Shown: positions 10,239 through 27,870 of the stretch, piece by piece
Position numbering within the stretch: position 1 is the first letter of the stretch
How the letters are laid out: each line of letters begins with the position of its first letter
Assembly: GCA_002695185.1 (NCBI GenBank)
Contig: NZOF01000061.1
Coordinates: 1-39,277 of the forward strand
From: Erythrobacter sp.
Lineage (GTDB): Bacteria; Pseudomonadota; Alphaproteobacteria; Sphingomonadales; Sphingomonadaceae
DNA length: 39,277 nucleotides
Direction of reading: 5' to 3'
Notes under the pieces: generated by a model
The model's database searches: none
Told to the model about the DNA's origin: nothing
The model's input: the letters and a program-made list of their open reading frames with translations, nothing else
Translations under genes and position numbers: made by a program

Positions 10239-13200
10239 TTAATGAAAGTCGCGCGATTTCGGAATGATGCGCACATCACGCGGGTGTCCCTGATGCCATC
10301 CGCATTCGCGGTTGCCTGGCGGAGGCTCCTGCCATGGTTCCACAGGCTGATAGGGATCCTCATTGCCTTCCCGTAGATTGTCCCGTGGATTGAACTTGTC
10401 CGGCAGGGGCGATGCCACGTGGTCGGCACGCGCAAGCGGGGCGTTGAGCATATCATCGGAAAGCTTGTGCAGATCGGCTGTCGCATCGGTCATGTGCTGC
10501 GCGATCACATGGATTACTTCGTCGTCATACTCCACGCGGCCTCTCACTTCCATCAGCCTTGCCCCCATCACCACGCGCCGCTGCCTTTCTTTCAGGTCCG
10601 GCCAGATCACAAGGTTGATGACGCCCGTCTCGTCCTCCAGCGTGATGAAGCATACGCCTTTCGCACTGCCCGGTCGCTGGCGGATCAGCACTACGCCTGC
10701 AACATGGACCATACTGCGAAATTTCCTCTCGCGAAGGTCGCAGGCACGGACAAAGCCGCGATCAGCCAGGCTGGCACGTAAGAAAGCCATCGGGTGTGCC
10801 TTGAGGCTGAGACGCGTGGTCTGGTAATCGGCGACCACTTCCTCGGACAGCGGCATCTGTGGCAAGCGCGTGGGATGCTTTTCGGCGCCTTCATCATGCG
10901 CGGCAGCAGCAGCGAAGAGCGGCAGGTCCGGCCCACCGATGAGGCTTCTTGCATCCCACAGCGCCTGCCTGCGCGACAGGTTCATCGACCCGAAGCCGTC
11001 GGCACTGGCGAGCCGTTCGACGTGCGATGGCCCGATCCGTGCCCGATCGCGCAAGGCCCGCACATCCTCGTAGATGCCGTTCTCCTCACGCTCGGACACC
11101 AGCTGTGCCGCGACTGCTTCGGGCAAACCGTCGATCTGTCGCAAGCCAAGCCGCAAGGCGAAACCATTATCGAAGCGGCCTTGCCCCTTTGGGGCGGAAG
11201 ACTCCACCCTTTCCAGAGTACAATCCCATTGCGAATGGTTCACATCCGCAGGCAGCACCCGTACCCCGTGTTCCGCCGCATCGCGCACGATCTGCGCCGG
11301 GGCGTAAAAGCCCATCGGTTGCGAGTTGAGCAGCGCACAGCCAAAGGCGGCAGGGAAGTGGCATTTGAGCCAGCTCGACACATAGACGAGGTGCGCAAAG
11401 CTTGCCGCGTGGCTTTCGGGAAAGCCATATTCACCAAAGCCGCGGATCTGGTTGAAACAGCGCTGCGCGAACTCGCGGTCGTAGCCGCGGTCGACCATGC
11501 GTTCGACCATCATGTCCTGCAATTCGTCCACCATGCCGCGGCTGCGGAAGGTCGCCATGGCCTTGCGCAACCGGTTCGCTTCCTTGGACGAGAACTTGGC
11601 CGCATCGAGCGCAATCTTCATGGCCTGCTCCTGGAAGATCGGTACGCCCAACGTACGTTCGAGAATGCTCGACAATTCGTCAGGTGGGCCGTGATGCGGA
11701 CTTGGTGCGGGTATCTCCACCTTCTCGGCCCCGCGCCTTCGTTTAAGATAGGGATGGACCATGTCGCCCTGGATCGGGCCGGGCCGAACGATAGCGACCT
11801 GAATCACGAGATCGTAAAATTCGCGCGGACGCAGCCTTGGCAGCATGTTCATCTGCGCGCGGCTTTCGACCTGGAATACGCCGAGCGAATCCCCCTTGCG
11901 CAGCATGGCGTAAGTGTCGGGATCTTCACGCGGGACGGTTGCCAGAGTGAGAGTCCGGCTGTGATGATCGTCAATCAGGTCGAGGCATTTCCTGATGCAA
12001 CTCAGCATTCCCAGCGCCAGAACATCGACCTTGAGGATGCCCAGTGCTTCGATATCGTCCTTGTCCCATTCGATGAAACTGCGGTCGGGCATGGCACCGT
12101 TGCCCACCGGTACCGTTTCGGTCAGCGCATTTTCGGTTAAAATGAAACCGCCTACGTGTTGTGACAGATGCCTCGGCATTCCAATCATTTGCTCGGTCAG
12201 CTTAAGAACCCGCCTCAGATGCGGATCTTTCACATTCATGCCAGTTTCCGCGGCATGTTTCTCGCTAATCTCGCGGCCCCACCCGCCCCATACCGTCTTG
12301 GCGAGCGCTGACGTGACGTCTTCGCTCAATCCCATGGCCTTACCCACTTCGCGGATGGCCATGCGCGGACGATAGTGAATCACTGTGGCGCACAGCCCTG
12401 CCCGGTGACGGCCATATTTGCGATAGAGGTACTGGATCACCTCCTCGCGCCGCTCATGCTCGAAATCGACATCGATATCGGGCGGCTCCTTGCGATCCTC
12501 GGAGATGAAGCGGTCGAACAAAAGCTGGTGCTTCGAAGGATCGACATTGGTGATGCCGAGACAATAGCATACCGCAGAGTTGGCCGCACTGCCGCGCCCC
12601 TGGCACAGGATCGGCGGATCGACCTTGTTGCGCGCGAAATCGACAATGTCCTTGATGGTCAGGAAATAGCGCGCAAGATCCATCTTGCCGATCAGCGCCA
12701 GTTCTTTGCGCAGCGTTTCGGTCACGCCATCCGGCACCCCGTCGGGATAGCGCCAGCCAGCTCCCTTCCAGGTCTCTTTTTCGAGATAGTCCTGCGGTTC
12801 GGCGCCGCCGGGATACAGTTCTTCGGGATACTCATATTGCAGCTGATCGAGGCTGAAATCACAGGCGTCGGCCACGGCGCGCGCGGCTTCGATCGCATGG
12901 GGCCATGGTTCGAACAGATGGCACATGGTCTCTGGCGGCTTCAGATATCGCTCGGCATTACTCTGAAGCAGATAGCCCGCCCGCGCCACAGTAGTCTTAT
13001 GGCGGATCGCGGTCATTACGTCCTGTAGCGGCCGGCGCTCCGGCGCGTGATACTGCACATCATTGGTGGCGAGGATGGAAAGATCATGATCCTTGGCCAG
13101 CGCGTCGAGCCGGGCAATCCGGGCGAGGTCGTTCCCAGCGTAAAAGAAAGTCGCAGCGATATGGTGTAGCGCCGGTAGTCCGGCGGCAAGATGCGGCACG

Positions 13201-13772
13201 ATTTCCACAAAGGGTGCCGTGACCGCCATTTCTCTCTGTTCGCTTTCCGCTGTGCCGTCTGGCGTGGCCCAGGCTGGAACGGTGAACTCGCATGCCAGAT
13301 CGGGTGGCGGAATTAGAATCAGTTGCACGTCTTTGCTGTGCCCGGCCAGCATCGCTAACGAGATATCGCACACGCCCTTCTCCTGCCACTCGTTGTCGAG
13401 CGTGCGCATCCGGCCCGCGGAAATCAGGCGGCACAAACGACCATAGGCCTCACGGTTTTTGGGATAGGCGAGGAAGGCCAGCCCCTCGACCGTTTCGATC
13501 CGGCAACCGATACAAGGCTTGAGCTTGAGCGTTTTCGCCTCTGTGTGCACCCGCACCACGCCCGCCATGCTGTTGGCATCGGCGATCCCGATCGCGTCAT
13601 ACCCCAGCCTGCGCGCTTCCATTACCAAGTCTACCGCATCGCTCGCTCCGCGCAGGAAGCTGAAACACGAGACGAGACCGAGTTCGACGAACGGCGCGCG
13701 CGCTGGTGCGTCTATTTCATCGGGATCAAGGTCGATAGTGCGCTTGGGTATCTGCTGGTCATTCTCGGGCAT
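10239..13772 (-). CDS. dnaE2: Error-prone DNA polymerase DnaE2 (ImuC)
   Basis: C-family polymerase of the ImuA-ImuB-DnaE2 mutasome, which carries out mutagenic translesion synthesis after DNA damage. The 1177-residue protein has a PHP domain at the N-terminus starting FVELGLVSCFSFLRGAS, where the first metal-binding His motif of replicative DnaE is not conserved, as is usual in DnaE2. The polymerase core contains CQGRGSAANSAVCY (about 390) and PDIDVDFEHERR with catalytic D434 and D436. A helix-hairpin-helix region follows, then a C-terminal OB fold (about 1030-1100, VAGVVLIRQRPGSAKGVCFITLEDETG). DnaE2-specific wording such as GFGEYGFPESHAASFA distinguishes it from DnaE1. It starts 21 bases after the udgX stop, so it belongs to the operon behind the LexA box at 16489. 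Confidence 0.96.
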   Translation of the reverse strand: MPENDQQIPKRTIDLDPDEIDAPARAPFVELGLVSCFSFLRGASDAVDLVMEARRLGYDAIGIADANSMAGVVRVHTEAKTLKLKPCIGCRIETVEGLAFLAYPKNREAYGRLCRLISAGRMRTLDNEWQEKGVCDISLAMLAGHSKDVQLILIPPPDLACEFTVPAWATPDGTAESEQREMAVTAPFVEIVPHLAAGLPALHHIAATFFYAGNDLARIARLDALAKDHDLSILATNDVQYHAPERRPLQDVMTAIRHKTTVARAGYLLQSNAERYLKPPETMCHLFEPWPHAIEAARAVADACDFSLDQLQYEYPEELYPGGAEPQDYLEKETWKGAGWRYPDGVPDGVTETLRKELALIGKMDLARYFLTIKDIVDFARNKVDPPILCQGRGSAANSAVCYCLGITNVDPSKHQLLFDRFISEDRKEPPDIDVDFEHERREEVIQYLYRKYGRHRAGLCATVIHYRPRMAIREVGKAMGLSEDVTSALAKTVWGGWGREISEKHAAETGMNVKDPHLRRVLKLTEQMIGMPRHLSQHVGGFILTENALTETVPVGNGAMPDRSFIEWDKDDIEALGILKVDVLALGMLSCIRKCLDLIDDHHSRTLTLATVPREDPDTYAMLRKGDSLGVFQVESRAQMNMLPRLRPREFYDLVIQVAIVRPGPIQGDMVHPYLKRRRGAEKVEIPAPSPHHGPPDELSSILERTLGVPIFQEQAMKIALDAAKFSSKEANRLRKAMATFRSRGMVDELQDMMVERMVDRGYDREFAQRCFNQIRGFGEYGFPESHAASFAHLVYVSSWLKCHFPAAFGCALLNSQPMGFYAPAQIVRDAAEHGVRVLPADVNHSQWDCTLERVESSAPKGQGRFDNGFALRLGLRQIDGLPEAVAAQLVSEREENGIYEDVRALRDRARIGPSHVERLASADGFGSMNLSRRQALWDARSLIGGPDLPLFAAAAAHDEGAEKHPTRLPQMPLSEEVVADYQTTRLSLKAHPMAFLRASLADRGFVRACDLRERKFRSMVHVAGVVLIRQRPGSAKGVCFITLEDETGVINLVIWPDLKERQRRVVMGARLMEVRGRVEYDDEVIHVIAQHMTDATADLHKLSDDMLNAPLARADHVASPLPDKFNPRDNLREGNEDPYQPVEPWQEPPPGNRECGWHQGHPRDVRIIPKSRDFH

Positions 13773-13793: not shown

Positions 13794-15248
13794 TTATGCC
13801 AACTCCTCGAGCCGCTCCTTCACTGCGGCGAGATCGGCATCGAACAGCCGCTCCTGCTCCTCGCGCGCGGGACCATCAAGGCGAAGGAGATAGGACGGGT
13901 GGGAGGTGATCCACAGCTCGCTGCCGTCTTCCAGCGGAATGGGCGTGCCCCGAGCCTTGGAGATGCTCACTGTCTTTCCCAGCATGCCGCGCGCCGCGCT
14001 CGCCCCCATGGCGAGTATCAGCTTGGGCTGGACGATCGCGCGCTCGCTCTCGATCCACCAGCGGCAGGTATCGATTTCCTTTGCACCGGGATTTTGGTGC
14101 AGCCTCCGCTTGCCGCGCTGGACATATTTGAAATGCTTCACCGTATTCGTGACATAGGCCGCCTTCCGGTCGATACCGGCCCGATCAAGATGGTGTTCGA
14201 GCAGTTTTCCGGCCGGTCCGACAAAGGGACGGCCAGCCAAATCCTCTTGATCGCCCGGCTGTTCGCCCACAATCATCAGCGCAGCATCCTGCGGTCCCTC
14301 GCCCATAACAGCTTGATTATCGAGGCTGCCGATCGGGCATTTGCGGCAGGCGTGAATTGCCTTGTCGATCGCTGCCAGCGTATCGGGCCGCTCTTCGAAT
14401 TCCAGCGTTCCCTTTTCGACCATAGCACTTTCCCGCTTCTGCGCGCCCGCCACCAATTCGGGAATGAGCGTGGCTTCGGGCATGTTTTTCCAGTATTTTT
14501 TCGGCATCTCCTTGAGCATGGCGCCAATCTTCAGCCGCGCCGGATTGAAGATAGAGGCGTAGTAAGTGCGCCAGAGATCCTCCATCGGATCGCCCTGAGG
14601 CGCGTCGTGACGTTCAGCTGGCGGCCCCTCCGCCATGGTTTCGCCATCCCAGTGAAGCGAGCCGCGCGGCGTCAGGATCGACCAGCGCATGTTCGAAAAA
14701 CGCCGCATGAAGAACCCTGCATTGGCCCGAAGAATATGATGCTCCGGCTCGAACCAGGCAACGTAATGCTCACCCCCCTCGCCATCTTCGCCACCGGAAC
14801 GATCGGGGCTTTCGACCAGCCGAAAGCGCACAAAAGCATGCATCTTGTGGCTGTCACGCCTCACGCTCTTGTCGAGTTCCTCCAGCTTTCTGACATCTGG
14901 ATCAGCCTTGTCTTCCATCATCCGCGGCTTGCCTTGTAGCCTCCAGAGCAGGCGGTAGAGCAGCGCAAACCGTTCAGGGTCCGAATGAAGGATGGCATTA
15001 CGCGCAAGTTGTACAAAGCGTCGGTTGGCCCGTACCGGCCTCGCTCCCTTGGGAGGGACAGGCATACGCCGTTCTCCATGGGCGAAGAGGTCCCCGCTAC
15101 CGCCGGGTTCGGCCCATGCGATACGGTCCGGTGGCACATCGCATTGGACGAAAGCCCGCGCCCGCTCGCGCCAGAAATCGAAATCATCCGCATCAGGCAG
15201 TTGGACAACGTAGTAGGTGCCGAGTTTGACGTGTTGGAGCGCAGTCAC
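13794..15248 (-). CDS. DUF4130 - UdgX fusion protein (uracil-DNA binding)
   Basis: Two-part DNA metabolism protein of 484 residues. Residues 1 to about 270 match the DUF4130/TIGR03915 domain (for example FALLYRLLWRLQGKPR, DSHKMHAFVRFR, WSILTPRGSLHWDG), function unknown. Residues about 285-484 are a UDG-superfamily domain of the UdgX type: CRKC (301/304), motif A GEQPGDQEDLAGRPFVGPAG (328-347), the insert KRRLHQNP (380-387) with H384, and HPS (450-452). In mycobacterial UdgX the matching His attacks C1' and leaves the protein covalently bound to DNA at the excised uracil. Cys 301, 304 and 395 fit iron-sulfur ligands. The start overlaps the radical-SAM gene stop by 4 bases and dnaE2 follows, so all three are probably SOS-induced together. 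Confidence 0.92.
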   Translation of the reverse strand: MTALQHVKLGTYYVVQLPDADDFDFWRERARAFVQCDVPPDRIAWAEPGGSGDLFAHGERRMPVPPKGARPVRANRRFVQLARNAILHSDPERFALLYRLLWRLQGKPRMMEDKADPDVRKLEELDKSVRRDSHKMHAFVRFRLVESPDRSGGEDGEGGEHYVAWFEPEHHILRANAGFFMRRFSNMRWSILTPRGSLHWDGETMAEGPPAERHDAPQGDPMEDLWRTYYASIFNPARLKIGAMLKEMPKKYWKNMPEATLIPELVAGAQKRESAMVEKGTLEFEERPDTLAAIDKAIHACRKCPIGSLDNQAVMGEGPQDAALMIVGEQPGDQEDLAGRPFVGPAGKLLEHHLDRAGIDRKAAYVTNTVKHFKYVQRGKRRLHQNPGAKEIDTCRWWIESERAIVQPKLILAMGASAARGMLGKTVSISKARGTPIPLEDGSELWITSHPSYLLRLDGPAREEQERLFDADLAAVKERLEELA

Positions 15249-16486
15249 ACGAACAGCTCCAGCTGCTCGGTTTTCGGGGCGAGCAGGCTGCGCAGGTCGG
15301 CGCGATCGGTGAGAGTGATCGGCCGCCAGTCGATAGTACAGATGAAAGGTCGAACCTTGGTGATGGACTGAGTCAGCAGCGACACATCGTCCAACCGTAG
15401 GCCGCGATGACGGCGACTTGCCAAGATCTTGCCAACCGCCTTCACGCCTAAGCCCGGCACACGCAGCAATTGCTCCTTGGTCGCGCGGTTCACATCAACT
15501 GGAAAGGCTTCACGAAACTTCAAAGCCCAAGCAAGTTTGGGATCGATATCAAGCGGCAAATTCCCGTCTGCTTCTGTCGCATGCATGACGTCCGAAGGCT
15601 TGTAACCGTAAAAGCGCATCAACCAGTCAGATTGGTAAAGCCTGTGCTCGCGGATCAAAGGTGGACGCTTCAGCGGCAGCACCGCGCTCGCATCTGGGAT
15701 TGGCGAGAACGCGCTGTAATAGACACGGCGCAGGCGGAAATTATCGTAAAGCCGGCTTGCCTTGCCCACAATATCTGCGTCAGTCGCTGCATCGGCGCCC
15801 ACGATCATTTGCGTAGACTGGCCGGCGGGCGCAAACCGGGGGGCATGCCTGAACCGCTTGCGGGCATCCTTGGCCTCCACCAGATCCTCTTTCACCTTGC
15901 CCATCGCGCCCTCGATCTGGCGCGCATCCTTGTCCGGCGCGAGACGTGTTAGGCCGCTGTCAGTCGGCAGTTCGACATTGATGGAGACCCGATCAGCATA
16001 AAGCCCCGCCTGATGGACTATTTCTGCATCTGCTTCCGGGATGGTCTTCAAGTGAATGTAGCCGCGAAAATCATGTTCTTCGCGCAAGATCCGGGCAACC
16101 TCCACGATCTGCTCCATCGTGTGGTTGGAATTCTTCACAATACCCGAGGAAAGGAACAGCCCTTCGATATAATTGCGCCGGTAGAAAGCGAGCGTGAGAT
16201 CGACCACTTCTTGCGGTGTGAAACGCGCGCGAGCCACGTTCGAGCTCTTACGATTCACACAATAATGACAATCAAACACACAGTGGTTGGTCAGTAAAAT
16301 CTTGAGCAGCGAGATGCAGCGTCCATCTGGCGCATAGGCATGGCAGATCCCCATCCCTTCGGTCGATCCAATGCCCTTACCGCCCAGGCTGTTCTTCTTC
16401 GCGGTACCGGAGGACGCGCAGGAAGCATCGTACTTCGCTGCGTCGGCGAGGATCTCGAGTTTTTGAAGGACGGTTTGCAGAGTCAT
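15245..16486 (-). CDS. Putative DNA modification/repair radical SAM protein with helix-hairpin-helix
   Basis: Member of the TIGR03916-type radical SAM family, reaction unknown. The [4Fe-4S]/SAM motif is C69xxxC73xxC76 (NHCVFDCHYC), preceded by the family opening EILADAAKYDASCASSG. The barrel continues through GLFLSSGIVKNSNHTMEQ and RVSINVELPTD. A helix-hairpin-helix segment (about 330-360, VDVNRATKEQLLRVPGLGVKAVGKIL) indicates DNA binding. The last residues, EQLELFV (407-413), contain QLELF, which fits the QL[S/D]LF sliding-clamp-binding consensus. The gene heads the radical SAM, udgX, dnaE2 unit, and its ATG lies only 2 bases from a LexA box, so the transcript may have a very short or no leader, or a downstream start may be used. 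Confidence 0.9.
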   Translation of the reverse strand: MTLQTVLQKLEILADAAKYDASCASSGTAKKNSLGGKGIGSTEGMGICHAYAPDGRCISLLKILLTNHCVFDCHYCVNRKSSNVARARFTPQEVVDLTLAFYRRNYIEGLFLSSGIVKNSNHTMEQIVEVARILREEHDFRGYIHLKTIPEADAEIVHQAGLYADRVSINVELPTDSGLTRLAPDKDARQIEGAMGKVKEDLVEAKDARKRFRHAPRFAPAGQSTQMIVGADAATDADIVGKASRLYDNFRLRRVYYSAFSPIPDASAVLPLKRPPLIREHRLYQSDWLMRFYGYKPSDVMHATEADGNLPLDIDPKLAWALKFREAFPVDVNRATKEQLLRVPGLGVKAVGKILASRRHRGLRLDDVSLLTQSITKVRPFICTIDWRPITLTDRADLRSLLAPKTEQLELFV

Positions 16487-16785
16487 ATGTTCTATATATG
16501 TTCCGCTCCAGCATTCGCCAATAACAAAAGGTAATTGGTTTGTTTGCGAGAAGTGGGCATGTGAGGTTCATGCTCGCTACGCCCATCGGAGTTGTATGGA
16601 GCGAGGTGTAGCCGAAGGTCTGCGGCCTCACTCCTCGAATACGAAGGGGATCCGCTGCGGCCTTATTCACTCAACCGGGAAACGGATGACGATATTCTGG
16701 AGTTATCATTATTGGAGCGCCAAGCATGATAACCCAAAATTAACCAGGTTCGTGTAAAAATCGATTAACAAGAGGGACTTGCCGA
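16487..16785. other. 299-bp intergenic region between radical-SAM and PilZ genes
   Basis: Divergent promoter region. It contains the LexA box (16489-16503). The middle (about 16550-16665) can form local stems, for example CTCGCT at 16573 with AGCGAG at 16600, and holds a direct repeat of TGCGGCC (16621 and 16656). I cannot match this to a known RNA or repeat family. Two TTAAC words (16740, 16765) precede the PilZ gene but are not in CtrA-box spacing. Confidence 0.4.
16489..16503 (-). promoter_or_regulatory. LexA (SOS) box of the radical SAM-udgX-dnaE2 unit
   Basis: The sequence GTTC-TATATAT-GTTC (GAAC-N7-GAAC on the coding strand) is an exact match to the alphaproteobacterial LexA operator. 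It is 13/15 identical to the box before imuA. It ends 2 bases from the ATG of the radical-SAM gene. Confidence 0.9.
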
Positions 16786-17184
16786 GTGGCACTTTTCCAG
16801 AAAAAATCTGGCCAGAAATCCGATGAGCGCAGGACCGTACAGCGCTATTCTGTCGACTGTACCAGTCGGCTCAAAATGCCTGGCGGCAACCGGGACGGAC
16901 GCCTGTCGGATCTTTCACAAACCGGTGCGCGGTTCGAGACGGCCAATCCGCCGCAACAGGGCGTTTCAGGCTTGTTGTCGTGGGGTGAGCACGAATTCTT
17001 CGGCAAGATCGTATGGACGCGCGATAGCAGTTGCGGATTTCTTTTCGAACGCCCGATACCGGCATCGGTCGTTGAAGAGACCTGTGATGTGGTGGAAGTC
17101 GAATCCGGCCCGGTGGCAAAGTTCGATAATATTCCCGTCGCCAAGCGGGGCCGCCGTGCGTCGCTTGTGTCGCGCGACAGTTGA
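16786..17184 (+). CDS. PilZ domain protein (predicted c-di-GMP receptor)
   Basis: Stand-alone PilZ protein of 132 residues. The two c-di-GMP-binding motifs are intact: RxxxR in RRTVQRYSV (about 16-24) and DxSxxG in LSDLSQTGARF (about 42-52). The barrel continues with GLLSWGEHEFFGKIVW and CGFLFERP. The C-terminal 30 residues are basic (AKRGRRASLVSRDS). It starts with GTG behind AGAGGGA (16771-16777). It is transcribed against imuB (31-base gap between the two stops) and away from the radical-SAM gene, so it is flanked on both sides by SOS mutagenesis units. Target process (motility, exopolysaccharide or other) cannot be told from the sequence. Confidence 0.85.
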   Translation: MALFQKKSGQKSDERRTVQRYSVDCTSRLKMPGGNRDGRLSDLSQTGARFETANPPQQGVSGLLSWGEHEFFGKIVWTRDSSCGFLFERPIPASVVEETCDVVEVESGPVAKFDNIPVAKRGRRASLVSRDS

Positions 17185-17190
17185 GTTTTG

Positions 17191-17215
17191 CGAGGAGCCC
17201 CCTCGTCATTGTTTA
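17191..17215 (+). terminator. Weak hairpin between PilZ and imuB
   Basis: CGAGG-AGCCC-CCTCG followed by TCATTGTTTAT lies in the short gap between the convergent PilZ and imuB genes. The stem is only 5 bp and the T-rich tail is interrupted, so this is a tentative call. Confidence 0.3.
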
Positions 17216-18766
17216 TCAGGTGAACAATCCCTGCAGGTACCACTTTGGCTTACCACCTCGTCCATCTCCGATGATGCCGAGCCGATAGATCCAGTAGCGC
17301 CTCCCTCTCTGATCCTCAATCCGGTAATAATCGCGTAGTCGGGTACCACCGCGCTCACGCCACCATTCAGGGGCGATACGTTCGGGGCCTTCGACACGTT
17401 TGATATCGTGTACCTCGTCGCGCCAGCGGAAACGCTTGGGATATCCATCGGGAGTGGCGTAGAGCACAGCAATCTGCTCGGCCTTGTCGAGCAGTTTCAA
17501 AGGGCGTTGATGGAAGACAAACTGACCTTGGTTGGCCGGTTCGGGCTCTAAAGGCGGTTGGCCCCGCTGCGCACGCTCGGGGATGTGGCTGGCTGAAGGC
17601 ACGAGCCGTGTGACGGCACGGGGCCCAAGGCGCACGGTGAGCCGATCGACCAAGGTGGAAAGCGCGATGCCATGGTTTTTCGAAGCCGTCTCGATATCGC
17701 TTTGGTCCAATGCCAAGGCTTCTGACCAACTGGCACGCAAACGCAGCATTTCGATCCCGAACCCTGCATCTACATCATCTAGCTTGCTGACAAAAAGGCG
17801 TACAAAATGCGCGGCCTCTCGGGTTGCTGCAGCAAGTTCGATATGCCGCACAACCACTTCACCATCGACGCGCCACAAGCCGAGTTCCAGCCTGCGGGCG
17901 CCCTGCCCCTTGCCCTCCAGTTCGCGCACCATATCATCCGCCAGATCGTTCACCACCTGATCGAGCAAGTGGCGGTGTCGGATCGGCTCCAGCAGGCGGC
18001 GCTGTACCATCGGAATTTGTTGCGGAATGACTGGCAGCAGCGGTTCCGGTATCCGGCCGAGCAGCTGGTCCAGCCGGATTAGCGGGTTGGCAGAGGGAGA
18101 GTTCCGGTTGCGAAACCGTCTATTGATTCCATCGCGATCGACCGCCCAAAGCTCGCTCAGTTTCTTGAGCCCTAGCCGTCGAAGAACAGTGACGACATCC
18201 TGATCGAGCCTTAGTGCCGCCACGGGAAGCTCGCCCAGCCGTGTTTCCATTTCCTCATTTTTGCGCAGGATCGTACCCGATGCAGCATAATGGGCCAGTG
18301 CCCAAGCTGCCCCGGCAGTCGGAGCTATGGCACAACGCATAGCGATGTCGCGCTGTGCAAACACCGCAGCTACATCGGCAAGCAACTTTTCCTCGCCTCC
18401 GAAGAGATGCGGCACTGCGGTTACATCCACCAAAAGCCCATCCGGTACATCCATCGCCGACCAAGGTCCCCAGCGTCGTGCCCAGGCAGCAAGCTTTTCC
18501 AAGAAAACGAGATCGCCTTCAGGGTCGGACAGTGCCGTAGTAATTTCAGGGCAAAGCGAATGTGCATCAGCCAACATCATCCCTGCCCTGGCCCCGGCAG
18601 CAGCGCTTGTGCGGTTGGTCGCTTCGATCCGCGGCCCATGCGCTGTATCAGCGGTCAGGACAAACGGCTTGTCATCTAGCTCCCGTCTCTCCGCCGCGCC
18701 CATACGCCAGCGGTCCATGGCCATGGACGGGAGCCAGATAGAAAGGATACGGCGCGGCTGATCCAT
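17216..18766 (-). CDS. imuB: ImuB, Y-family polymerase-like mutasome subunit
   Basis: Catalytically inactive Y-family polymerase relative that in Caulobacter and Mycobacterium bridges ImuA, DnaE2 and the sliding clamp. The 516-residue protein starts with ILSIWLPSMAMDRW, where active Y polymerases have the first catalytic Asp pair. The second site (PWSAMDVPDGLLVDV, about 101-115) lacks the catalytic Glu of the usual SxDE motif, so polymerase activity is not expected. The C-terminal region (NQGQFVFHQRPLKLLDKAEQI, WWRE...RLRDYYRIEDQRGRRYWIYRLG) is the typical ImuB extension. I find no clear QL[S/D]LF-type clamp motif, although QGQFVF is a loose candidate. It follows imuA by 14 bases. Confidence 0.93.
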   Translation of the reverse strand: MDQPRRILSIWLPSMAMDRWRMGAAERRELDDKPFVLTADTAHGPRIEATNRTSAAAGARAGMMLADAHSLCPEITTALSDPEGDLVFLEKLAAWARRWGPWSAMDVPDGLLVDVTAVPHLFGGEEKLLADVAAVFAQRDIAMRCAIAPTAGAAWALAHYAASGTILRKNEEMETRLGELPVAALRLDQDVVTVLRRLGLKKLSELWAVDRDGINRRFRNRNSPSANPLIRLDQLLGRIPEPLLPVIPQQIPMVQRRLLEPIRHRHLLDQVVNDLADDMVRELEGKGQGARRLELGLWRVDGEVVVRHIELAAATREAAHFVRLFVSKLDDVDAGFGIEMLRLRASWSEALALDQSDIETASKNHGIALSTLVDRLTVRLGPRAVTRLVPSASHIPERAQRGQPPLEPEPANQGQFVFHQRPLKLLDKAEQIAVLYATPDGYPKRFRWRDEVHDIKRVEGPERIAPEWWRERGGTRLRDYYRIEDQRGRRYWIYRLGIIGDGRGGKPKWYLQGLFT

Positions 18767-18780
18767 GGCAGACCAACAAG

Positions 18781-19668
18781 CTAGCGCCGCTTGCCTTGGA
18801 CTTGTCGGAAACGAGACTGTTCCGAAAGCACAACGGATCTATCTTCGATTGCTGTGCTCGACGGCTTGAAAAACGCTCTTTCGGCGAGCCCGAAACGTGG
18901 CCCGATATGCTGAACGATAGAGAATGGCTTGCCGGTGGGTGGCGAAGAGACCTGCGGCGCTTCACGACGAGCCTCCAGCCGCTTCCCGAACTCTTCGAAA
19001 ACCCATTCGCCCGGTGGATGCGAGCGGGCACGGAAGAGCTCACCCCGCCACGACGGATTGCCTGGTGCTTGCGCGTTCCATTCGGGTGCGGTGGATGGAG
19101 CCGAAGTCACTTGCCAGCGCATCCGGGCCGAAGACAGGTCACGCGCCGCATCGACCCGCAACAGGAACAAAGGTACCTCGTGTTTCTGCGCAGTCAGCGT
19201 CAGCCGACGCGAAGCTGTGAAGTCCAACGCCTTTGGATTGCCGGCAATTTCCCCGATAACAAAGGATAGCTCACGACAGCGCAACCCTTCCTCCATCGCA
19301 AAAAGCGCATCTTCCGCCTTGTGGGCCAGCACATGAATGACGCGCGACTGCAAATCCTGCGGTAGCCCGGCACGATACGGTTTACCTCCCAAGCGCGCCG
19401 CCTCACGCGTCTGCACCCAGAGTATGCTGCGTTGATCGCTCATCTCCCGGCCTTCTTTCGGCGACGCGTTACGCCAATCGTCAAGTGCCAGCGCCAGCAC
19501 TGCACCAGCACCTGCCGCTTCTCTCGAGGAGGCGAACACTTCGCTGTGCAGAGCTTTTCCATGTAGGCGAGCCAACCCAGGCCTCCAGCGCTCACTATGA
19601 CGCTCAGGTAGTGTGGCGACATCTTCAGAGGCGGTCGTCGGCAAGGAGGAGAGAGCTAGTTGGATCAT
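18781..19668 (-). CDS. imuA: ImuA, mutasome accessory protein
   Basis: SOS-induced partner of ImuB and DnaE2, distantly related to RecA and SulA. The 295-residue protein has the family pattern LHGKALHSEVFASSREAAGAGAVLALAL, where ordinary RecA-fold ATPases carry Walker A; no intact P-loop is seen. It then has SILWVQTREAARLGGKPYRAGL, DALFAMEEGLRCRELSFVIGEI and LDFTASRRLTLTAQKHEVPLFLLR. The C-terminal part (about 225-295) is basic and disordered-looking. The ATG is 17 bases from the LexA box at 19686-19700, and imuB follows after 14 bases. Identification rests on these motifs plus the imuB and dnaE2 context. Confidence 0.9.
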   Translation of the reverse strand: MIQLALSSLPTTASEDVATLPERHSERWRPGLARLHGKALHSEVFASSREAAGAGAVLALALDDWRNASPKEGREMSDQRSILWVQTREAARLGGKPYRAGLPQDLQSRVIHVLAHKAEDALFAMEEGLRCRELSFVIGEIAGNPKALDFTASRRLTLTAQKHEVPLFLLRVDAARDLSSARMRWQVTSAPSTAPEWNAQAPGNPSWRGELFRARSHPPGEWVFEEFGKRLEARREAPQVSSPPTGKPFSIVQHIGPRFGLAERAFFKPSSTAIEDRSVVLSEQSRFRQVQGKRR

Positions 19669-19685
19669 ATGGAACCGAATCGTCT

Positions 19686-19700
19686 GTTCTCTTTATGTTC
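19686..19700 (-). promoter_or_regulatory. LexA (SOS) box of imuA-imuB
   Basis: GTTC-TCTTTAT-GTTC (GAAC-N7-GAAC on the imuA strand) fits the alphaproteobacterial LexA operator exactly, 17 bases before the imuA ATG. It lies between imuA and the divergent general stress gene, so it might also affect the latter. Confidence 0.9.
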
Positions 19701-26505: not shown

Positions 26506-27870
26506 TCAGTCCTGTAAATCGTACTGCTTCAGCAGGTCGTAAAGGGTCGGGCGACTGATGCCCAACAGCTTTGCCGTCATCGAAATGTTACCTTGACTAC
26601 GAGCCATCGCCTGCCGGATCATTCGTCGATCCGCAGCCTCTCGCGCTTGCTTGAGGTTTAGCGGTTGCTCACCTCCCTCGCAGCGTTGCTCAAGATCGAG
26701 ATCCTCCGCAGTGACGAGCTTGCCATCGGCCATAATAACCGCGCGTTTGACCCTGTTCTCTAACTCGCGAACATTACCAGGCCACTTCCAACCATCAATC
26801 GCTTCTAGCGCATCGGGCGCGAAGCCTTTGACCTGAGGATTCATTTCCCCGGCAAATCTAGTCAGGAAATGTTTGGCCAAGAGGACGCTGTCACCCGGGC
26901 GTTCGGTTAATGCAGGCACCCTGATTACCACCTCGGCCAATCGGTAGAACAGATCCTCGCGAAACGTATTGTCGCCGATCATTTCTTCGAGGTTTTGATG
27001 AGTCGCGCATACGATGCGGGTATCAACCGCGATTTGTTTACGCCCCCCTAGGCGTTCAATAACCCGCTCCTGCAGAAAGCGCAGTAATTTGACCTGGAGC
27101 GCGAGCGGGATATCACCTACTTCATCGAGAAAGAGAGTGCCACCGTTAGCCATCTCAATCTTACCTTCGGTGGTTTTTACCGCTCCAGTAAATGCTCCCT
27201 TTTCATGTCCGAAAAGTTCGCTTTCAAGAAGGCTTTCTGGAATTGCGGCACAATTGATTGCTACGAAGGCGCCCTTTCTACGGTCGCTTGCCTCATGTAC
27301 GCCCTTGGCAAGCAGTTCTTTTCCAGTTCCGCTCGCACCGAGAAGCATAACCGAAATGTTGGTAGGCGCCACTCGTTCGATCGTTCGCGCAACCTTAGCC
27401 ATTTCAGGTGCGGTAGTAATCATCCTACCCAGAACCGTTTTGTCTTCGCCAATCTTGGCGGAAAGTCGGCGGTTCTCAATTTCGATCTGGCTAAGTTTGA
27501 AAGCGCGACCGACGATAAGCCCGAGGTTCTCGATATCGACCGGTTTTTGATAGAAGTCGTAAGCGCCCCGTTCAATGGCCTGCAAAGCGCTTTCGCGTGC
27601 GCCATGGCCCGAGGCAACGACCACTTTAGTATCTGGCTTCATCGCCATTATCGCATCCAGCACGGCGAAACCTTCACTCGTTCCGTCAGGGTCAGGCGGT
27701 AAACCCAGGTCGAGAGTTACTACAGCAGGCTCTTGACTGCGAATGGCTGCCAGCGCCTGATCTCGGTTACCGGCAATAATGACATCATAGTCATCGTAGG
27801 CCCATTTCAGTTGTGCCTGCAGCCCTTCATCATCCTCAACGATAAGCAATCTCGGCTTGGTTTGCGCCAT
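26506..27870 (-). CDS. prsR: PrsR-type sigma-54-dependent response regulator (PEP-CTERM system)
   Basis: Two-component activator of exopolysaccharide and PEP-CTERM target genes in organisms with XrtA exosortase. The receiver domain (1-125) has the phospho-acceptor D54 in VVTLDLGLPPDPDGTSEGF. The AAA+ domain has Walker A GASGTGKE (178-185), the sigma-54 contact loop GAFTGA (225-230), Walker B TLFLDE (245-250) and an arginine-finger region FREDLFYRL. The C-terminal Fis-type HTH reads ISMTAKLLGISRPTLYDLLKQYDLQD. The 454 residues match the PrsR subfamily. The ATG shares one base with the prsK stop (TGATG), so translation is coupled. No exosortase or EPS genes are in the window. Confidence 0.92.
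   Translation of the reverse strand: MAQTKPRLLIVEDDEGLQAQLKWAYDDYDVIIAGNRDQALAAIRSQEPAVVTLDLGLPPDPDGTSEGFAVLDAIMAMKPDTKVVVASGHGARESALQAIERGAYDFYQKPVDIENLGLIVGRAFKLSQIEIENRRLSAKIGEDKTVLGRMITTAPEMAKVARTIERVAPTNISVMLLGASGTGKELLAKGVHEASDRRKGAFVAINCAAIPESLLESELFGHEKGAFTGAVKTTEGKIEMANGGTLFLDEVGDIPLALQVKLLRFLQERVIERLGGRKQIAVDTRIVCATHQNLEEMIGDNTFREDLFYRLAEVVIRVPALTERPGDSVLLAKHFLTRFAGEMNPQVKGFAPDALEAIDGWKWPGNVRELENRVKRAVIMADGKLVTAEDLDLEQRCEGGEQPLNLKQAREAADRRMIRQAMARSQGNISMTAKLLGISRPTLYDLLKQYDLQD

What the first reader, a model, noticed from the sequence alone, without database searches (positions are those of the whole stretch)
13794..19700. SOS-controlled cluster joining translesion mutasome with a radical-SAM/UdgX pathway of unknown chemistry
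imuA-imuB and a radical SAM (TIGR03916-like), DUF4130-UdgX, dnaE2 unit lie side by side on the minus strand, each behind its own GTTC-N7-GTTC LexA box (13/15 identical). ImuA/ImuB/DnaE2 are a known mutasome. The radical-SAM protein and the DUF4130 domain have no assigned reaction. UdgX relatives trap uracil sites covalently. Placing them in the same SOS response and, by spacing (4-base overlap, 21-base gap), on one message with the polymerase suggests a lesion-processing step that feeds or blocks mutagenic bypass.
Basis: partly seen in the sequence, partly recalled or inferred. Interest (0 to 1): 0.82.

Follow-up and report, generated by a model that had tools for sequence, protein, structure and literature searches.

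The report
SOS-controlled radical-SAM/UdgX genes beside mutasome
A bacterial DNA-damage gene cluster joins a well-known error-prone polymerase with a conserved but biochemically unexplored pair of repair-like proteins, and the damage-response switch in front of that pair has been kept across distantly related bacteria.

Summary
In detail: imuA-imuB and rSAM-(DUF4130-UdgX)-dnaE2 lie as described, each behind an exact GTTC-N7-GTTC box. Comparison supports SOS control: an exact box precedes the rSAM gene in 78 of 80 Sphingomonadales loci and 74 of 84 Pseudomonadota genomes, alpha- or gamma-type by clade, against 15 of 1192 other ORF starts. In Sphingomonadales the box holds the likely -10 element and ends 2 nt before ATG in 62 of 78: probably a leaderless message. 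The constant core is rSAM plus DUF4130 (same 22 of 150 genomes; same-strand downstream in 84 of 84); UdgX is optional but here keeps the known crosslinking residues. dnaE2 is correlated (72 of 84 against 98 of 314, uncorrected), not required; it is physically linked in two separate clades. Prior art: the DUF4130/rSAM/UDG association (2013) and predicted SOS control of a UDG-COG4277 operon (2021). The rSAM reaction and DUF4130's role remain unknown. Most likely (inferred): a damage-induced DNA-lesion processor, with UdgX shielding uracil/abasic sites in gaps that DnaE2 fills.

The parts
18781..19668 (-). imuA (mutasome subunit)
   Evidence: ORF; weak NF033429 hit; found behind a LexA box in relatives
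19686..19700 (.). LexA box of the imuA-imuB unit, GTTCTCTTTATGTTC
   Evidence: box present in 24 of 24 relatives with a usable imuA start
17216..18766 (-). imuB (Y-family-like, PF00817/DUF6504)
16786..17184 (+). PilZ-domain ORF on the opposite strand between imuB and rSAM; separates the two units
   Evidence: PF07238
16516..16521 (-). likely -35 element TTGGCG
   Evidence: conserved T and G at these positions in the 79 aligned sequences (window plus 78 loci)
16489..16503 (.). LexA box of the rSAM unit, GTTCTATATATGTTC; ends 2 nt before the rSAM ATG
   Evidence: 78 of 80 loci; 74 of 84 genomes (either box type)
16493..16498 (-). likely -10 element TATATA inside the LexA box; implies a leaderless start at the ATG
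15245..16486 (-). radical-SAM protein TIGR03916 with C-terminal HhH
16316..16420 (-). region holding conserved C23, C48-H49 and C57, possible extra metal site
   Evidence: each conserved in 171 of 172 sequences
16259..16282 (-). CX3CX2C radical-SAM cluster motif (C69, C73, C76)
   Evidence: 172 of 172
15401..15502 (-). helix-hairpin-helix (DNA-binding-like), residues 329-362
   Evidence: PF12836 (23.6 bits, below the gathering score of 27); ComEA-like hits
13794..15248 (-). DUF4130-UdgX fusion protein
14475..14978 (-). DUF4130 domain, residues 91-258
   Evidence: PF13566
13821..14468 (-). UdgX domain, residues 261-476; KRRLH loop 380-384 at 14097-14111
10239..13772 (-). dnaE2, error-prone polymerase
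   Evidence: NF004225 1371.3 bits

Best explanation
The downstream unit is a LexA-repressed lesion-processing operon. Shown by sequence: an operator that covers the likely -10 element of a probably leaderless promoter; a constant rSAM-DUF4130 pair; an optional fused UdgX with its catalytic residues; dnaE2 as last gene. Inferred: rSAM and DUF4130 form one enzyme that acts on damaged DNA (HhH for DNA binding, SAM radical for the chemistry, DUF4130 as DNA- or partner-binding subunit). UdgX captures uracils in the single-stranded gaps made during damage repair and shields the resulting abasic site by a covalent bond, as HMCES/YedK does for abasic sites, while ImuA-ImuB-DnaE2 fills the gaps. Putting dnaE2 in the same message would keep lesion processing, gap protection and gap filling in step.
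For: LexA boxes. Box type follows clade with 2 changes on the rSAM tree (7 if loci without an exact box are a third state), so SOS control was kept or refitted when the LexA motif changed. Core pair: rSAM and DUF4130 above cut-off in the same 22 of 150 genomes; same-strand DUF4130 downstream in 84 of 84, within 100 nt in 77; also downstream in 4 of the 5 fetched loci from Acinetobacter or from outside Pseudomonadota (profile hits for L134, L135, L136; L081 by tblastn only; not L084). The window's UdgX has all residues matching E52, Q53, D56, D59, F65, N91, K94, R107, H109, H178 and R184 (roles). dnaE2 linked in two separate clades, 5 co-oriented and 7 divergent genomes, the latter with one exact box between the two units. 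dnaE2 co-occurs with rSAM in 72 of 84 against 98 of 314. DnaE2 fills NER-made gaps in Caulobacter (passages of PMC8102061); UdgX is proposed to protect abasic sites, with RecA-dependent or proteolytic resolution (passages of PMC10359453).
Against: 12 of 84 rSAM genomes have no called dnaE2 (one of these, G082, has a split dnaE2), and in 72 of 84 no dnaE2 was found in the fetched stretch. The dnaE2 association is not corrected for phylogeny. UdgX and dnaE2 correlate raw (58 of 72 against 4 of 12) but not in independent pairs. Ten of 84 rSAM genes have no exact box. In the 5 fetched loci from Acinetobacter or outside Pseudomonadota no alpha-, gamma- or GAAC-N4-GTTC-type box was found; one low-information GGA-N5-TCC match lies 191 nt upstream in L136. 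No substrate or activity of rSAM or DUF4130 came from these tools; the rSAM model is of middling quality (pLDDT 74.6), weakest around the N-terminal cysteines and the cluster motif. DUF4130 shows invariant Arg and aromatic residues but no obvious catalytic set.
Confidence: 0.45

Rival explanations
1. rSAM-DUF4130(-UdgX) is an independent SOS repair module. Its place next to dnaE2 is convenience: SOS genes gather under shared LexA boxes, without a biochemical step in common with the mutasome.
For: LexA boxes persist in 9 of the 12 genomes where dnaE2 was not called and where it is not adjacent; linkage is confined to two clades; even close relatives differ: L009 (96% rSAM identity) has dnaE2 adjacent, L001 (95%) does not. 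Of 28 genomes picked from the 56 loci without dnaE2 in the stretch, 26 have it over cut-off elsewhere in the genome; the other two are G007 and a fragmentary MAG, G017.
Against: Two separate linkages, one through a shared operator, and strong raw co-occurrence.
Confidence: 0.35
2. The rSAM protein is a spore-photoproduct-lyase-like enzyme reversing a UV thymine lesion, with DUF4130 and UdgX handling thymine or uracil products.
For: Aravind and others 2013 call the associated rSAM proteins SplB-like and suggest thymine modification (passages and figure legend); rSAM core fold; HhH.
Confidence: 0.15
3. The rSAM enzyme modifies its partner protein (DUF4130 or the fusion) rather than DNA, for example by activating or crosslinking it.
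For: Constant pairing of rSAM and DUF4130, as for rSAM enzymes and their target peptides (recalled).
Against: HhH domain, SOS control and UdgX fusion point to DNA; TIGR03915 is a 243-position domain, not a short peptide.
Confidence: 0.08
4. The unit makes mutations: it creates or exposes uracil-like or abasic sites for DnaE2 to bypass.
For: Probably the same message as dnaE2, and SOS control.
Against: Module common without adjacent dnaE2 and present where dnaE2 was not called; UdgX is proposed to protect abasic sites.
Confidence: 0.07

Closest known systems
UdgX of Mycobacterium smegmatis
   Different: Here fused to DUF4130 and encoded after a radical-SAM gene under a LexA box; the solved chains cover the glycosylase part only
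COG1573-COG4277 two-gene UDG operon in LexA networks (Bacteroidetes; said to be reported also in Verrucomicrobia and Alphaproteobacteria)
   Same: UDG plus partner under LexA (PMC8565304 passages); COG4277 as this HhH/rSAM family is recalled
   Different: Described there as a base-excision system; the radical-SAM nature of the partner, DUF4130 and adjacency to dnaE2 are not mentioned in the passages seen
imuA-imuB-dnaE2 mutasome (Caulobacter, mycobacteria)
   Same: Same three genes under LexA boxes
   Different: Split here into imuA-imuB and rSAM-DUF4130-UdgX-dnaE2 units, each with its own box
SRAP/HMCES/YedK abasic-site shield
   Same: Works alike by inference: covalent capture of an abasic site in DNA, SOS-associated in bacteria (start of abstract of PMC9436759 in the listing; passages of PMC3765255)
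   Different: A different protein family; UdgX starts from uracil
Spore photoproduct lyase
   Same: Radical-SAM DNA-repair enzyme, reported as SOS-regulated in several species
   Different: No family-level match seen for the protein here

Membership tests
TIGR03916 rSAM_link_UDG | score above the curated cut-off | tested here: met
   570.7 against 343.5 bits
TIGR03916 rSAM_link_UDG | CX3CX2C motif | tested here: met
   C69, C73, C76 in 172 of 172 sequences
TIGR03916 rSAM_link_UDG | DUF4130 (TIGR03915) partner | tested here: met
   same 22 of 150 genomes; same-strand downstream in 84 of 84; in the window itself
UdgX | GEQPG motif, KRRxH R-loop with crosslinking His, HPS...R motif | tested here: met
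   alignment; among 135 related UdgX-bearing sequences the His is kept in 131, E329 in 132, R382 in 133, D336 in 121, R381 in 111
UdgX | covalent bond with uracil DNA | not testable with these tools
   needs protein
imuA-imuB-dnaE2 mutasome | all three genes, behind LexA boxes | tested here: met
   the ImuA family score is well below its cut-off
imuA-imuB-dnaE2 mutasome | ImuB without catalytic acidic residues | not tested
   no residue-level test run
alphaproteobacterial LexA regulon | GTTC-N7-GTTC operator at the promoter | tested here: met
alphaproteobacterial LexA regulon | induction by damage, derepression without LexA | not testable with these tools
   needs RNA data
spore photoproduct lyase | family profile or specific fold match | tested here: inconclusive
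   no SPL named among NCBIfam hits or among the 50 fold rows shown; absence excludes nothing

The most novel reading that the evidence does not exclude
rSAM-DUF4130 is a new SOS-induced radical DNA-repair enzyme acting on a lesion not handled by known direct-reversal enzymes, using a second metal site built from C23, C48 (H49) and C57 next to the SAM cluster; UdgX is an optional add-on that turns the module into a gap-protection partner of the DnaE2 mutasome.
Probability: 0.35. Interest if true: 0.88.

Novelty: new variant of a known kind. Interest (0 to 1): 0.62.

Why it matters
A repair-like radical-SAM/DUF4130 pair, for which the papers searched give no reaction, stands behind LexA boxes in most of the sampled Pseudomonadota genomes that carry it (74 of 84). 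That makes the open questions of what it repairs, and what UdgX is for in the cell, directly testable: damage agent by deletion, and epistasis with dnaE2 in a laboratory Sphingomonadales or Caulobacter strain.

Tried and rejected
Motif count alone as evidence: rejected, since three exact boxes in the window are near chance. Anti-phage defence reading: no PADLOC match for rSAM or DUF4130-UdgX at E up to 0.01. Phage origin: 10 of 50,697 phage records hold an rSAM relative, all under 60% identity (whether these records are truly phage was not checked); in PHROGs the rSAM protein has one weak hit (E 3e-4) and the other three proteins tried have none. DUF4130 fold: no credible solved relative by sequence (best E 0.059 and 0.26) and no other Pfam family for the window domain; the fold searches with the fusion model were filled by the UDG domain, so the DUF4130 fold is untested. 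SPL did not appear among the fold rows shown, which excludes nothing. A UdgX-dnaE2 functional tie was suggested by raw counts but not borne out by independent pairs (5 pairs on starred branches, too few to reach 0.05). One-mismatch boxes in L184, L195-L198, L047 and L069 were read by eye without a control and are not in the 74 or the 78. Papers PMC4951493 and PMC2238201 are not held; no SOS listing of this operon was seen in the passages found in PMC6120978, PMC6473078 and PMC13384398. A mechanism built on a lipoyl-synthase-like auxiliary cluster was considered because lipoyl synthases head the fold list; the model is poor in that region, so it is left as an idea.
Full report
What is there. 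The window carries, on the minus strand, imuA (18781-19668), imuB (17216-18766), a radical-SAM gene (15245-16486), a DUF4130-UdgX fusion (13794-15248) and dnaE2 (10239-13772). The radical-SAM protein scores 570.7 bits to TIGR03916 (cut-off 343.5), the fusion 230.8 to TIGR03915 and 319.1 to TIGR03914, and the polymerase 1371.3 to the error-prone polymerase family. The host looks like an Erythrobacteraceae member (named nearest proteins are from Qipengyuania and Erythrobacter); its genome is not held.

Is SOS control real? In the window the exact motif GTTC-N7-GTTC occurs three times against 1.05 expected, which proves nothing; the third copy is inside a response-regulator ORF. In 80 related loci (the best 80 of at least 596 confirmed; those with informative titles are Sphingomonadales) an exact copy stands before the rSAM gene in 78 of 80; the two misses, L047 and L069, show one-mismatch copies by eye. 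The box ends 2 nt before the predicted start codon in 62 of these 78. In 79 aligned sequences (the window and 78 loci), T (0.92) at -18 and G (0.96) at -16 from the box start fit a -35 element, and T5 and A6 (1.00) with T7 (0.70) and A8 (0.82) inside the box fit a -10 element 17 nt further on. Transcription would then start at the ATG, i.e. a leaderless message with the operator over the -10 (inference from spacing). imuA has a box in 24 of 24 loci with a usable imuA start (L002 excluded as cut off).

Beyond this order. Of 398 genomes drawn from the phylum of G001 (the genome of L001, Qipengyuania vulgaris, hence Pseudomonadota), 84 have TIGR03916 above cut-off. In 74 of 84 an exact box lies in a 330-nt window at the rSAM start: 55 of the alpha type and 19 of the CTGT-N8-ACAG type, none with both; control windows from the same loci have either type in 22 of 2045. 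All 74 lie within 95 nt of the start, whereas 15 of 1192 other ORF starts in these loci (mechanical ORFs of 200 aa or more) have a box within 100 nt upstream. On a quick rSAM tree the two box types need 2 changes, or 7 if 'no exact box' is a third state, so the operator follows lineage, as expected if LexA specificity does. Of the ten without an exact box, five (L184, L195-L198) have a one-mismatch gamma box by eye, three (L123, L164, L167) have another inverted repeat, and L114 and L160 show neither. Six of six named plasmid-collection Pseudomonadota loci also have an exact box. Of the five fetched loci from Acinetobacter or outside Pseudomonadota none has an alpha-, gamma- or GAAC-N4-GTTC-type box; L136 has one GGA-N5-TCC match 191 nt upstream.

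What is the core? In a 150-genome draw the rSAM and DUF4130 profiles pass their cut-offs in exactly the same 22 genomes. The UdgX profile passes in 21 of 150, of which 17 are rSAM genomes. All 84 rSAM loci have DUF4130 downstream on the same strand, within 100 nt in 77, 101-700 nt in 5 and 2.8-3.0 kb in 2; 62 of 84 show a UdgX domain, and two of the 22 without (L161, L162) are cut by the contig end or the fetched stretch. Of the five loci from Acinetobacter or outside Pseudomonadota, L134, L135 and L136 have a DUF4130 protein without UdgX directly downstream by profile and L081 by tblastn only; L084, whose rSAM scores 303.3 bits and so below the TIGR03916 cut-off, has no match. So rSAM-DUF4130 is the constant pair and UdgX an optional addition.

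Link to the mutasome. dnaE2 is called in 72 of 84 rSAM genomes and 98 of 314 others (Fisher 7e-20, not corrected for kinship). It lay in the fetched stretch in 12 of 84: 5 co-oriented downstream as in the window, 7 divergent with imuA-imuB-dnaE2 reading away from the rSAM gene and one GTTCATGATATGTTC box between; imuB is seen in 11 of these 12, the twelfth (L150) lying near a contig end. The two arrangements sit in separate clades. Among the 80 Sphingomonadales loci 24 have dnaE2 in the stretch. Against a strict dependence: 12 of 84 have no called dnaE2 (one split), 9 of them with an exact box; and close relatives differ, L009 having dnaE2 adjacent and L001 not. UdgX presence follows dnaE2 in raw counts (58 of 72 against 4 of 12), not in independent pairs.

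What was known. Aravind and others (2013, PMC3765255; passages and a figure legend) describe DUF4130 as a predicted mutagenesis-related enzyme associated with SplB-like radical-SAM proteins and UDGs. A 2021 study (PMC8565304; passages) predicts LexA control of a COG1573-COG4277 operon in Bacteroidetes and cites earlier reports in Verrucomicrobia and Alphaproteobacteria; those two papers were not readable, and that COG4277 is this radical-SAM family is recalled. In S. venezuelae a radical-SAM gene is a LexA target induced 20-fold by mitomycin C (PMC9380542, Table 1 in a passage); whether it is this family was not checked. A search for papers holding two of UdgX, radical SAM and DUF4130 found only PMC3765255; one for DUF4130 or the TIGR names found that paper and PMC13212565, which names TIGR03914 once and was not opened. 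I therefore know of no published reaction for rSAM or DUF4130 in the library held; most subscription journals are not in it.

Verdict. It is a new variant (module joined to dnaE2) of a known but uncharacterised kind.

Noticed in passing
L041:9314-9799 and 15 other loci: A hemerythrin-like ORF sits on the same strand between rSAM and udgX in 16 of 76 loci with a udgX match (4 of 4 tested by profile are PF01814); it might protect or repair the radical-SAM iron-sulfur cluster.
   Followed up: partly
L123, L164, L167 upstream of rSAM: Instead of a LexA box L123 and L167 have an inverted repeat GGTCTCATCCAATGAGACC, and L164 its core TCTCATCCAATGAGA with a mismatch outside (by eye); another regulator may be at work.
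   Followed up: no
L084:5989-7254 (Gemmatirosa plasmid): A diverged rSAM relative below the TIGR03916 cut-off lacks C23, C48, H49 and C57 together, and no DUF4130 match by tblastn was found in its locus.
   Followed up: partly
L136 upstream of rSAM (record labelled Bacteriophage sp.): Two one-mismatch copies of a GAAC-N4-GTTC-type box lie close before the rSAM gene, by eye; no exact one.
   Followed up: no
G079, G083, G099, G167: UdgX above cut-off in genomes without the rSAM gene, in short reading frames of 212-310 aa; G099 keeps only a DUF4130 remnant with a stop.
   Followed up: no
window 27315-27329: Third exact GTTC-N7-GTTC copy, inside a sigma-54 response-regulator ORF; probably chance.
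   Followed up: yes
Acinetobacter phage MD-2021a records (hits H42, H43): rSAM relatives of 53% identity in two records named as phage of about 240 kb; whether they are truly phage was not checked.
   Followed up: no
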